64,000 bases of DNA, taken from NCBI GenBank assembly GCA_027013145.1, contig JALUXX010000005.1, positions 1-64,000 on the forward strand, read 5' to 3'. This DNA is from Gammaproteobacteria bacterium. GTDB taxonomy: Bacteria; Pseudomonadota; Gammaproteobacteria; 21-64-14. Every line of letters begins with the position of its first letter. Position 1 is the stretch's first letter. Under the pieces are notes generated by a model, which was not told where the DNA came from, did not search any database, and saw only the letters and a program-made list of their open reading frames with translations. The translations under genes were made by a program, and so were the position numbers. Shown in pieces: positions 49,451-55,790 of this stretch.

Positions 49451-50677
49451 TCAGTTCCCGCCGCGCCCGCCCGCCGCCGGCGCGCGCGAGGGCGCCGCAC
49501 CGATGCCGCGCAGGTCGGCGAACGCGGCGCAGATGGCGTCGATCTGCTCCGGCTCATGCGCGGCACTGACGCTGCACCGGACCAGCGAGCGCCCCTTCGG
49601 GGTCGCCGGCGGGATCATGAGGTTCACGTACACCCCGCGCTCGATCAGCCCCGCCCAGATCGCGAGCGCCTGCTCGCGCGTATCCAGCAACACCGCCACC
49701 ACCGGGCTCGGATCGGCGCCGAGGCGAAAACCGAGCGCCTCGAGCCCGCGGTAGAGGCGCTCGGCATTCGCCCACAGGCGCCGGCGCAACGCGGGTCGTT
49801 GGCGCAGGATGGACAGGGCCGCGCGCGTCGAGGCGATCACCGAGGGCGACGGCGAGGCCGTGAAGACGTACGGACGGCTGGCGTAGCGGAGGACCTCGAG
49901 TTCCGGGCGATCGCTGACGCAGAAACCGCCGGTCGCCCCCAGGCTCTTGCTGAAGGTCCCGACGATGAAATCGACCTCCGACTCGACACCGGCCTCCTCG
50001 GCGACCCCGCGGCCGCGGTCGCCCGTGACGCCGAGCGAATGCGCCTCGTCGACCATCAGATAGCCGCCGCACTCGCGCCGCACCGCGGCGAACTCCGCGA
50101 GCGGCGCGCGATCGCCGAGCATGCTGTAGATCCCCTCGACGACGATCACCGCATCGGCGGCGCGCGCACCGAGGCGCAGCAGGCGCTTGCGCAGATCCTC
50201 CGGGTCGTTGTGCCGGAAGCGGATCATCTCGGCCCCGCTCAGGCGCGCCCCGTCATAGATGCTGGCATGGCAGTCCGCGTCCACCAGGAGCACGTCCCCG
50301 GGCGCGGTGAGCGAGGAGAGCATCCCGAGGTTGGCGAGGTAGCCGGTGGAGAAGACGATGGCCCCGCGGCGGCCGTAGAAATCCGCGAGTTCGCGCTCGA
50401 GGGCGAGGTGTCCGGCAAAGGTCCCGTTCGCCAGGCGCGATCCCGTGGTGCCGGTCCCCTCCGCGCACAGCGCCTCGCGCGCGGCGGCGATACAGTCGGG
50501 ATCGAAGCTCAGGCCGAGATAGTTGTTGGTCCCGGCGAGGATGACGCGCCGCCCGCCGATCTCGCCCTCGGTCGCCGAGTGGATCCTCTCGACCTCGACG
50601 CCGAAAGGCACGACGCCCTGACGGGCGAGTTCACGGCGCGCGGCCGCGAGGCGGGCGAACTTGTCGAACAGTGCCAC
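49451..50677 (-). CDS. spt: Alpha-oxoamine synthase, serine palmitoyltransferase-like
   Basis: NNYLGLSFDPDCIAAAREAL, VDEAHSLGVTGDRGRGVAEE, PLP lysine motif VGTFSKSLGATGGFCVSDRPELEVLRYASRPYVFTAS (49931-49969 region), which looks like bacterial SPT rather than BioF/KBL/ALAS. Confidence 0.85.
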   Translation of the reverse strand: MALFDKFARLAAARRELARQGVVPFGVEVERIHSATEGEIGGRRVILAGTNNYLGLSFDPDCIAAAREALCAEGTGTTGSRLANGTFAGHLALERELADFYGRRGAIVFSTGYLANLGMLSSLTAPGDVLLVDADCHASIYDGARLSGAEMIRFRHNDPEDLRKRLLRLGARAADAVIVVEGIYSMLGDRAPLAEFAAVRRECGGYLMVDEAHSLGVTGDRGRGVAEEAGVESEVDFIVGTFSKSLGATGGFCVSDRPELEVLRYASRPYVFTASPSPSVIASTRAALSILRQRPALRRRLWANAERLYRGLEALGFRLGADPSPVVAVLLDTREQALAIWAGLIERGVYVNLMIPPATPKGRSLVRCSVSAAHEPEQIDAICAAFADLRGIGAAPSRAPAAGGRGGN

Positions 50678-50680
50678 GGA

Positions 50681-50926
50681 TCAGTCGCCGGTCAGGCGCT
50701 GGATCTGCCGCGCCAGGTCGCGCACGGTGACGACGTCGGCGAGGATGTTGACCGGAATGGAGATATTGAAGCGGTCCTCCACCTCGAGCAGCATCTCCAT
50801 GACCTGAACCGAATCCAGCCCGAGGTCCCCCACCAGTTCCGTATCCTCCGTCAGGGAAGCCCGGTCCTGCCCGGAATCCTGCAGTCCCTGATAGATCTCC
50901 GCCAGAATCTCCTCGTAGTCTCTCAT
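50681..50926 (-). CDS. Dedicated acyl carrier protein
   Basis: GDLGLDSVQVMEMLLEVEDRFNISIPVNILADVVTVRDLARQIQ; next to the SPT-like gene. Confidence 0.9.
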   Translation of the reverse strand: MRDYEEILAEIYQGLQDSGQDRASLTEDTELVGDLGLDSVQVMEMLLEVEDRFNISIPVNILADVVTVRDLARQIQRLTGD

Positions 50927-53769: not shown

Positions 53770-54626
53770 CTCAAGGCTCTCCTTAGTGGAACCCCGGAAT
53801 TGCTTGCTCGAGGGACGGTGCCTCAACGTCTTCCATCGACGCCCCCCGGGAGAACTTGAACCGCCGCGGGGCGGCACCCCCGCCGGCGCCTGTGGATCGG
53901 CCCGATGTCGACGCACGAACGCCTCGCACCTGCGCGGCGCACGACTGAACCACCGACCGAAAACGGGGACCGCGAAACCCTGTCTGCAACGACCCGATGC
54001 TCCCTGATCCGCCGCGATTTGCGCCCGCCGGCGCCGCTGACACCCTCACCCGGGCCCGTCGCCCGACCGGGTCATTCCGCACGAGACGGCGGGGCTTTCC
54101 CAATCGGCGGCCTCCCGACAAAAAACCGCCACCGCTTCCCCCGCGCGCCGCGGCTGATGGTAGCATAACTGCAATAGGCCAGCCAAGCTACCGGGAAGAA
54201 ACGTATTTTCACAATCCTGACCCGCAGGTCAAGCCCCCCGGGCCGCGCGCGGCCGCAACGGCTCGGCGCCCTCCGTACCGCCACCGCGTCGATCCGCGCG
54301 ACCCCGACGCCGGCGCAACCGGCGTCCCGCCGCGTCGCGCGCGGACCGGCCTTGTCGTTGCCCTGTCGTTCCATAGTCGACGCAGGGCCGGTGGTCTTAC
54401 GAATCCGGCGGATGCCGCGATCCCGGCTCCACGCTAGAATACCGCCCGGACACGAGGCATGGGCCGCACAGGACGCACATGATGAGAAGAACCCTGCGCA
54501 CGCAAATCCGGCCGGCCGGGCCCCGCGGGCGGACCCGGTGAGCCCGCAACCCCGAACCACCGCACCGGCCGTCGGCGGCGCCGGCACCGCATTCCGCGCG
54601 CGCCGGTTCCGGCGCATCGAGCCGCG

Positions 54627-55790
54627 TTGAGTTCCCCACTGCAGCGTTCCCGGGCGTTGCGCGTCACGCCGGTCGAAGACCGGCGCGACCTCAGACGATT
54701 CCTCGGCGTCCCGCACACCATCTACCGCGATGACCCGGCATGGATTCCACCGCTGCTGCTCGAGCGGCGGGAGCACCTCTCCCGGCGCAATCCGTATTTC
54801 GAACACGCCGATTGGCGCGCGTGGATCGCGTGGCGCGGCACGCGCCCGGTGGGACGGATCACCGCACAGATCGACCGGCTCCACCTGGAGCGCCATCGCG
54901 ACGCGACCGGCTTCTTCGGGATGATCGAGGCCGAGGACCGGGCCGAGACCTTCCGGGCCCTCACCGACGCCGCCGAGACGTGGCTCGCGGCACAGGGAAT
55001 GCGGCGGGTCCGCGGGCCGTTCAGCCTGTCGATCAACGACGAGTCCGGGCTGCTGGTAGCGGGGTTCGACACGCCGCCGATGGTCATGATGGGCCACGCG
55101 CGACCCTACTACGGGCCGCACCTGGAGACCGGGGGCTACCGCAAGGCGATGGACCTGCTGGCGTACCGGCTGACGGCCGAGGCGCAACCCCCGCCGGCGC
55201 TTCGGGCCCTGGCCGAGCGGCTCGACGCCCGCGTACGCGTACGTCCGCTGCGCCGGCGCGACTTCCACCGCGAGGTGGCGATCCTGCGCGACATCTTCAA
55301 CGACGCCTGGTCCGAAAACTGGGGCTTCATCCCGTTCACCGAGGCCGAGTTCGAGGAATTGGGGCGCAACCTGCGCATGCTGCTCGACGACGATTTCATC
55401 CAGATCGCCGAGGTCGACGGCGAGCCCGCCGCGATGGCGGTCGCATTGCCGAACCTCAATGAGGCGGCGCATGACCTGCGCGGCCGGCTCTTCCCGCTCG
55501 GGTGGCTGAAGCTGCTGTGGCGGCTGAAGGTGCGCTTCCCGTCGAGCGGGCGCGTGCCGCTGCTCGGCGTGCGCAAGCGCTATCAGAACACCCTGCTCGG
55601 CCCCGCGCTCGCCTACATGGTCATCGATGCCCTCTCCGGGCCCGTGCGCCGCCGTGGCATCCGGATGATGGAGCTGTCCTGGATCCTCGAGACGAACAAG
55701 AGGATGCGCGCGATACTGGAGGATATGGGGGCCGAGGCATACAAGCGCTATCGTGTCTATGAGAAGACGCTGGCGGCCGACGGCGATTGA
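54627..55790 (+). CDS. GNAT-fold acyltransferase, candidate bacterial ceramide synthase (bCerS-like)
   Basis: 387 aa: YRDDPAWIPPLLLERREHLSRRNPYFEHADWRAWIAWR, ELSWILETNKRMRAILEDMGAEAYKRYRVYEK; divergent from SPT-cluster genes. Confidence 0.75.
   Translation: MSSPLQRSRALRVTPVEDRRDLRRFLGVPHTIYRDDPAWIPPLLLERREHLSRRNPYFEHADWRAWIAWRGTRPVGRITAQIDRLHLERHRDATGFFGMIEAEDRAETFRALTDAAETWLAAQGMRRVRGPFSLSINDESGLLVAGFDTPPMVMMGHARPYYGPHLETGGYRKAMDLLAYRLTAEAQPPPALRALAERLDARVRVRPLRRRDFHREVAILRDIFNDAWSENWGFIPFTEAEFEELGRNLRMLLDDDFIQIAEVDGEPAAMAVALPNLNEAAHDLRGRLFPLGWLKLLWRLKVRFPSSGRVPLLGVRKRYQNTLLGPALAYMVIDALSGPVRRRGIRMMELSWILETNKRMRAILEDMGAEAYKRYRVYEKTLAADGD

What the first reader, a model, noticed from the sequence alone, without database searches (positions are those of the whole stretch)
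49451..55790. Complete bacterial ceramide (sphingolipid) biosynthesis block in a gammaproteobacterial context
Five adjacent genes in a divergent arrangement match, one for one, the gene set shown to be needed for ceramide synthesis in Caulobacter crescentus: SPT-like alpha-oxoamine synthase (GTFSKSLG...GGFCVS PLP motif), dedicated ACP, NAD-dependent epimerase/reductase (CerR-like), acyl-ACP synthetase (AasR-like), and a 387-aa GNAT protein ending WILETNKRMRAILEDMGAEAYKRYRVYEK (bCerS-like). Gene-family identities are read from the sequence; the pathway assignment is inference from co-occurrence. Sphingolipids are poorly documented experimentally in gammaproteobacteria, so this locus predicts an unexpected envelope lipid in this organism.
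Basis: partly seen in the sequence, partly recalled or inferred. Interest (0 to 1): 0.85.

Follow-up and report, generated by a model that had tools for sequence, protein, structure and literature searches.

The report
Bacterial ceramide genes plus lipid exporter

Summary
In detail: all five genes are present at 49451-55790, in the stated order and orientation. The AOS is a serine palmitoyltransferase (SPT): NCBIfam NF047599 at 632 bits (cut-off 500), in a tree with Sphingomonas and E. coli BL21 SPTs, while the genome has a separate BioF. The GNAT protein is a tandem-GNAT enzyme, 51% identical to YghO, the published E. coli homologue of the Caulobacter acyltransferase. Ceramide synthesis is well supported by homology and synteny; no lipid has been measured.

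'Unexpected in gammaproteobacteria' is wrong at gene level. E. coli BL21 has the same five genes in the same divergent layout, its SPT/AcpR/AasR were assayed in 2022, and 4045 of 5426 complete E. coli genomes hold at least 80% of that block.

GNAT is followed by LptF-LptG (55839-57997), which both trees place with sphingolipid-linked pairs; the genome's second pair (contig 53) falls with, or next to, LPS-type pairs. A sister genome has the same seven genes.

One feature is unusual: ceramide kinase CpgB, the nucleotidyltransferase following GNAT in 70 of 86 loci, and YghR-type proteins were not found in this genome or its sister, though the same searches found them in control genomes. The head group is unknown. 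LpxC is present, so LPS is not replaced.

The parts
49451..50677 (-). spt: serine palmitoyltransferase (408 aa)
   Evidence: NF047599 632 bits, cut-off 500; 59% identical to E. coli BL21 SPT; SPT clade, SH-aLRT 100; PLP Lys, His159, Asp231, His234 and Arg390 equivalents conserved
50681..50941 (-). acpR: dedicated acyl carrier protein (86 aa), LGLDSV phosphopantetheine motif, stop 3 nt before spt start
   Evidence: PF00550 E 3.9e-12; same place in BL21 and relatives; 41% identical to BL21 AcpR
51029..51973 (-). cerR: extended SDR / NAD-dependent epimerase family, presumed (oxidised-)ceramide or 3-oxo-sphinganine reductase; start uncertain (TTG 51973)
   Evidence: PF01370 E 2e-27; 47.5% identical to the BL21 epi gene product; synteny
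52009..53769 (-). aasR: acyl-AMP ligase family, presumed acyl-AcpR synthetase; probable GTG start at 53769
   Evidence: NF006624 803 bits, cut-off 600; 48% identical to BL21 AasR; synteny
53770..54626 (.). divergent intergenic region (857 bp); a block of about 60 bp at ~54155-54218 is conserved in the sister genome, likely shared regulatory region
   Evidence: alignment with sister genome G001
54627..55790 (+). bcerS/cerS: tandem-GNAT N-acyltransferase (387 aa from TTG 54627; 377 aa from TTG 54657), YghO family
   Evidence: 51% identical to E. coli YghO over 379 aa; AlphaFold pLDDT 85.5; best PDB matches are tandem GNATs; only copy in the genome
55839..56930 (+). lptF2: sphingolipid-locus LptF paralogue
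   Evidence: TIGR04407 293 bits, cut-off 230; groups with 28 other sphingolipid-linked LptFs, SH-aLRT 99, apart from the genome's contig-53 copy
56927..57997 (+). lptG2: sphingolipid-locus LptG paralogue, overlaps lptF2 by 4 bp
   Evidence: TIGR04408 336 bits, cut-off 240; groups with 29 other linked LptGs, SH-aLRT 99; second pair on contig 53

Best explanation
This is the known proteobacterial ceramide biosynthesis block joined to its dedicated export permeases. Proposed mechanism: AasR adenylates a free fatty acid and loads it on AcpR; SPT condenses acyl-AcpR with serine to 3-oxo-sphinganine; the tandem-GNAT bCerS adds the second acyl chain to the amine; CerR reduces the 3-keto group, before or after acylation (disputed in the literature); and LptF2/LptG2, probably using shared Lpt parts, move the finished sphingolipid to the outer membrane beside normal LPS. 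Shown here: gene identities, orthology, synteny, second LptFG pair, LpxC present. Inferred from characterised relatives: every reaction. Not known: the head group and whether the genes are expressed.
For: SPT equivalog hit, SPT-clade tree, catalytic residues conserved, separate BioF in the genome. Same five genes and divergent layout in E. coli BL21, whose SPT, AcpR and AasR were assayed (PMC9386255). Same order in many loci of several phyla. bCerS: 51% to YghO, tandem-GNAT fold. LptF and LptG trees put the window pair with sphingolipid-linked pairs; the authors of PMC11324152 propose that Caulobacter LptF2/G2 transport sphingolipids. All seven genes kept at 71-85% identity in a sister genome.
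Against: No lipid data. Caulobacter CC_1154 itself could not be compared directly, only YghO. CerR belongs to a broad SDR family with no equivalog model reached. The Arg378 equivalent of Sphingomonas SPT is Ile here, although it is also not Arg in the assayed BL21 SPT. No known head-group enzyme was found.
Confidence: 0.87

Rival explanations
1. The synthase uses another amino acid (alanine, glycine or cysteate) and the block makes 1-deoxyceramide or a sulfono-type lipid, not ordinary ceramide.
For: Alpha-oxoamine synthases vary in amino-acid use; metalipidomics links Spt-like genes of Desulfobacterota and Bacteroidota to 1-deoxy and sulfono-1-deoxyceramides, and some of the window's SPT relatives are Desulfobacterota. 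A lipid without the serine hydroxyl would also need no head-group genes, which fits their absence.
Against: The serine palmitoyltransferase equivalog is passed by a wide margin; the enzyme lies within the clade containing Sphingomonas and BL21 SPTs, and the catalytic residues match.
Confidence: 0.08
2. LptF/LptG at 55839-57997 are simply the LPS exporter and lie next to the ceramide genes by chance.
For: They pass the LPS LptF and LptG equivalog cut-offs, and identity to the BL21 LPS pair is similar to that to the BL21 cluster pair.
Against: A second complete pair exists on contig 53. LptF and LptG trees separate sphingolipid-linked from unlinked copies with SH-aLRT 97-99, the window pair on the linked side. 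Linkage recurs across phyla.
Confidence: 0.08
3. The block is silent or decaying: ceramide genes kept without the rest of the pathway.
For: Head-group genes found in most relatives were not detected. E. coli K-12 shows that such a cluster can be lost beside an IS element.
Against: All seven reading frames are intact and conserved at 71-85% identity with the sister genome in the same order, and a block of the divergent promoter region is conserved; the cluster has the GC content of its surroundings, 70.9% against 71.1%.
Confidence: 0.05

Closest known systems
E. coli BL21(DE3) sphingolipid cluster (yghO, ECD_02851-02854, plus lptG-lptF), NC_012971 2989282-2997066
   Same: Same five genes, same divergent layout, plus a linked second LptFG pair; identities 59% SPT, 51% GNAT, 48% AasR, 47.5% CerR, 41% ACP
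   Different: In BL21 lptFG lies beyond spt on the other side and is followed by YtfJ, hypothetical, YghQ, YghR, YghS, YghT genes; YghR-type proteins were not detected in the window's genome
Caulobacter crescentus ceramide and CPG locus, CC_1152-CC_1168
   Same: spt, acpR, cerR, aasR, cerS and second LptF/LptG near cerS
   Different: Caulobacter carries CPG head-group genes (CC_1158-1161, 1152, 1153) including ceramide kinase CpgB; no CpgB or GNAT-linked nucleotidyltransferase was found in this genome. Caulobacter DNA itself was not compared here
Azotobacter / Pseudomonas asuensis / Nitrospirales full clusters (L052, L057, L043)
   Same: SPT-ACP-CerR-AasR divergent from GNAT, with LptF-LptG downstream of GNAT
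   Different: They have two nucleotidyltransferases between GNAT and LptF and cpgABC-like genes after LptG; in the window GNAT is followed directly by LptF
Sphingomonas SPT (PDB 2JG2, 2X8U) and sphingolipid system
   Same: Homologous SPT, 435 bits
   Different: Arg378 position is Ile; Sphingomonas replaces LPS with glycosphingolipid (stated in PMC11087976) whereas this genome has LpxC

Membership tests
Proteobacterial (rhodobacterial) ceramide biosynthesis block | SPT of the serine palmitoyltransferase clade, not BioF/KBL | tested here: met
   NF047599 632 bits against cut-off 500; tree; separate BioF on contig 21
Proteobacterial (rhodobacterial) ceramide biosynthesis block | SPT catalytic residues (PLP Lys, His159, Asp231, His234, Arg390) | tested here: met
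   conserved in all 65 aligned sequences; residue roles from own knowledge
Proteobacterial (rhodobacterial) ceramide biosynthesis block | acpR gene directly before spt | tested here: met
   50681-50941, 3 nt upstream of spt; PF00550
Proteobacterial (rhodobacterial) ceramide biosynthesis block | AasR of the acyl-AMP ligase subfamily near spt | tested here: met
   NF006624 803 bits against 600; 48% to BL21 AasR. Specificity for AcpR not testable
Proteobacterial (rhodobacterial) ceramide biosynthesis block | CerR-type reductase in the operon | tested here: met
   PF01370 SDR between aasR and acpR, 47.5% to BL21 epi; activity not tested
Proteobacterial (rhodobacterial) ceramide biosynthesis block | bCerS N-acyltransferase of the CC_1154/YghO family | tested here: met
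   51% to YghO, listed as the CC_1154 homologue in PMC9386255; tandem GNAT fold. CC_1154 not compared directly
Proteobacterial (rhodobacterial) ceramide biosynthesis block | makes (dihydro)ceramide | not testable with these tools
   needs lipid analysis
Sphingolipid-dedicated LptF2/LptG2 | linked to ceramide genes, paralogous to a separate LPS pair, grouping with other linked pairs | tested here: met
   For LptG the contig-53 copy sits next to, not inside, the LPS group; substrate not testable
Ceramide-phosphoglycerate (CPG) pathway | CpgB ceramide kinase and GNAT-linked nucleotidyltransferase | tested here: not met
   absent from G000 and sister G001, found in G014 and G048 by the same profiles. 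CpgA- and CpgC-type genes were sought only at the locus
E. coli-type head-group module (YghQ-YghT) | YghR-type ATP-binding proteins | tested here: not met
   no match in G000 or G001, three in the control genome; YghQ sought only at the locus; that this module makes a head group is itself an inference
Sphingomonas-type LPS replacement | no lipid A synthesis | tested here: not met
   LpxC at 21101-22048, TIGR00325 398 bits

The most novel reading that the evidence does not exclude
A lineage that keeps ceramide synthesis and a dedicated LptF2/LptG2 exporter but has shed (or never had) both described head-group modules, so that it exports a sphingolipid with a head group not made by any described pathway (or bare ceramide) to an outer membrane that also carries LPS.
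Probability: 0.3. Interest if true: 0.5.

Novelty: new member of a known kind. Interest (0 to 1): 0.3.

Why it matters
It adds a little-studied gammaproteobacterial lineage to the predicted sphingolipid makers, and it shows that LptF/LptG pairs of ceramide loci form a lineage of their own, apart from LPS exporters, which makes the proposed sphingolipid export route testable. The missing head-group genes make this genus a useful test of which export features depend on the head group. The side result that about three quarters of complete E. coli genomes carry most of the same block, while K-12 MG1655 lacks it, is a practical warning for lipid experiments in BL21 and for reading E. coli as sphingolipid-free.

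Tried and rejected
BioF/KBL/ALAS/CqsA identity of the AOS: rejected by score order (632 bits for SPT, 331 for BioF, 215 for the CqsA-type model), by the tree (no confirmed CqsA row was in it) and by a separate BioF gene. LPS-type identity of the linked LptFG: rejected by trees and a second pair. CPG head group: rejected, with positive controls; an earlier single-sequence search was uninformative alone. E. coli-type head-group module: YghR not found. Sphingomonas-like LPS loss: rejected by LpxC. Recent foreign DNA by composition: no GC difference. No solved structure of the bCerS family found by sequence. Failed or malformed calls. The nearest public relative by GNAT that bears a name is bacterium BMS3Abin12, unclassified at NCBI, so the order of the host could not be named.

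Full report
Observation. SPT 49451-50677, ACP 50681-50941, SDR 51029-~51973 and acyl-AMP ligase 52009-~53769 run on the minus strand; the GNAT protein 54627-55790 runs away from them on the plus strand across an 857-bp gap (start codons). Domain and family hits are far from chance: SPT to NF047599 at 632 bits (cut-off 500), acyl-AMP ligase to NF006624 at 803 bits (cut-off 600), ACP to PF00550, SDR to PF01370.

SPT. The best PDB matches are the Sphingomonas SPTs (435 and 426 bits). In a 77-row tree the window protein falls in the clade of Sphingomonas SPTs, E. coli BL21 SPT and cluster-linked SPTs, apart from the genome's own paralogue and other class members (SH-aLRT 100). That paralogue, on contig 21, is BioF above its curated cut-off, so biotin synthesis is covered elsewhere. 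The PLP lysine and other catalytic residues are conserved in all 65 aligned sequences; Arg378 of Sphingomonas SPT (residue roles: own knowledge) is Ile here and not Arg in any of the 64 cluster-linked SPTs, including BL21, whose SPT works in vivo (PMC9386255).

bCerS. The GNAT protein is 51% identical to YghO over 379 residues. PMC9386255 lists yghO as the homologue of Caulobacter CC_1154. An AlphaFold model (pLDDT 85.5) matches tandem GNAT enzymes such as glucosamine N-acetyltransferase and mycothiol synthase, which fits an amine-acylating role. No solved member was found by sequence. Caulobacter CC_1154 itself was not available for direct comparison.

Already known kind. Geiger and co-workers describe these five genes in alpha-, beta- and gammaproteobacteria, with all five clustered in Caulobacter and E. 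coli BL21, and showed by labelling and TLC that BL21 SPT, AcpR and AasR make 3-oxo-sphinganine. BL21 has the window's layout: yghO divergent from aasR-cerR-acpR-spt, plus a linked lptG-lptF pair. A 5-kb stretch of this BL21 block is held at 80% or more by 4045 of 5426 complete E. coli genomes (intactness of each gene was not checked). In 387 genomes drawn from the window's class, 20 carry an SPT above the curated cut-off. The same order is seen in Azotobacter, Pseudomonas, Salinisphaera, Nitrospirota and Desulfobacterota loci, and SPT genes of this kind occur on plasmids. Metagenomics has put Spt-like genes in 40 phyla (PMC11334938).

LptF (55839-56930) follows GNAT by 48 bp and LptG (56927-57997) overlaps it. 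The genome has a second pair on contig 53. In the LptF tree 29 sphingolipid-linked copies, the window's among them, form one side of a branch (SH-aLRT 99), with the contig-53 copy and E. coli LPS LptF on the other; one linked copy (Carnimonas) is the exception. The LptG tree gives the same split (99), except that the contig-53 LptG is the next branch outside the linked group. PMC11324152 proposes that the second LptC/F/G copies of Caulobacter transport sphingolipids, untested there. So the unit is best seen as seven genes, 49451-57997. The trees are quick searches without bootstraps and hold few LPS-type pairs.

What is missing: head-group genes. In 70 of 86 loci with room to see it, GNAT is followed by a nucleotidyltransferase, and many also have cpgABC-like genes. 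Profiles of the CpgB kinase and of that nucleotidyltransferase find nothing in the window's genome (99.9% complete) or its sister (96%), while finding targets in two control genomes. E. coli YghR-type proteins are likewise absent, with a control that rings. CpgA, CpgC and YghQ were sought only near the locus. Whether ceramide stays bare, gets sugars from unlinked enzymes, or has an undescribed head group is open. LpxC lies in the same window (21101-22048), so LPS is made as well.

Stability and origin. The sister genome has the same seven genes in the same order at 71-85% identity, beside nif3, and shares a block of the divergent promoter region. nif3 and htrA, which flank the window's cluster, are direct divergent neighbours in Litorirhabdus L090, so the cluster looks inserted between them; its GC content equals that of its surroundings, so the insertion is probably not recent. 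Direction and donor are not resolved by the SPT tree.

Verdict. A real, probably functional ceramide block of a known kind in a little-studied gammaproteobacterial lineage, extended by a dedicated LptF2/LptG2 pair. The only unusual element is the unknown head group.

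Noticed in passing
L192 (NC_000913.3) 9044-12409 compared with L006 (BL21) 4283-14843: In E. coli K-12 MG1655 an IS5 element lies between yghO and yghQ where BL21 has aasR-cerR-acpR-spt-lptG-lptF and two further genes; K-12 yghO is annotated as a putative transcriptional regulator although its family is the ceramide N-acyltransferase homologue.
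   Followed up: partly
G000 contig 53, 76933-79067 (L012): The second lptF-lptG pair of this genome lies next to pnp and truB, not next to pepA as in E. coli.
   Followed up: partly
window 48655-59297: The ceramide-LptFG cluster sits between nif3 and htrA, which are adjacent divergent neighbours in L090 (507-2401); the sister genome shows no htrA match there.
   Followed up: partly
window 49451-50677: The Arg378 position of Sphingomonas SPT is Ile here and non-Arg in all 64 cluster-linked SPTs aligned, including the active BL21 enzyme, so this arginine is not general among proteobacterial SPTs.
   Followed up: partly
L190 4006-4859 and 15065-15918: A Pseudomonas plasmid carries aasR-cerR-acpR-spt with an IS5-family transposase gene lying where the GNAT gene and nucleotidyltransferase would be expected.
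   Followed up: no
window ~5300-8390: Glycosyltransferase genes (a GT4 at 6263-7483 by Pfam, GT2-like proteins on either side by eye) about 40 kb from the ceramide genes; a possible but untested source of a sugar head group.
   Followed up: no
L103 (G026) 5222-11473: A divergent arrangement with AasR-like, SPT-like, GNAT-like and CerR-like genes at only 30-41% identity, on a very long branch in the SPT tree; possibly a different alpha-oxoamine lipid pathway.
   Followed up: no
L156, L157 (G241, G116): Two genomes of one family have SPT-like proteins (423 bits, below the cut-off of 500) with CerR-like neighbours, forming a sister clade to the cluster-linked SPTs.
   Followed up: no
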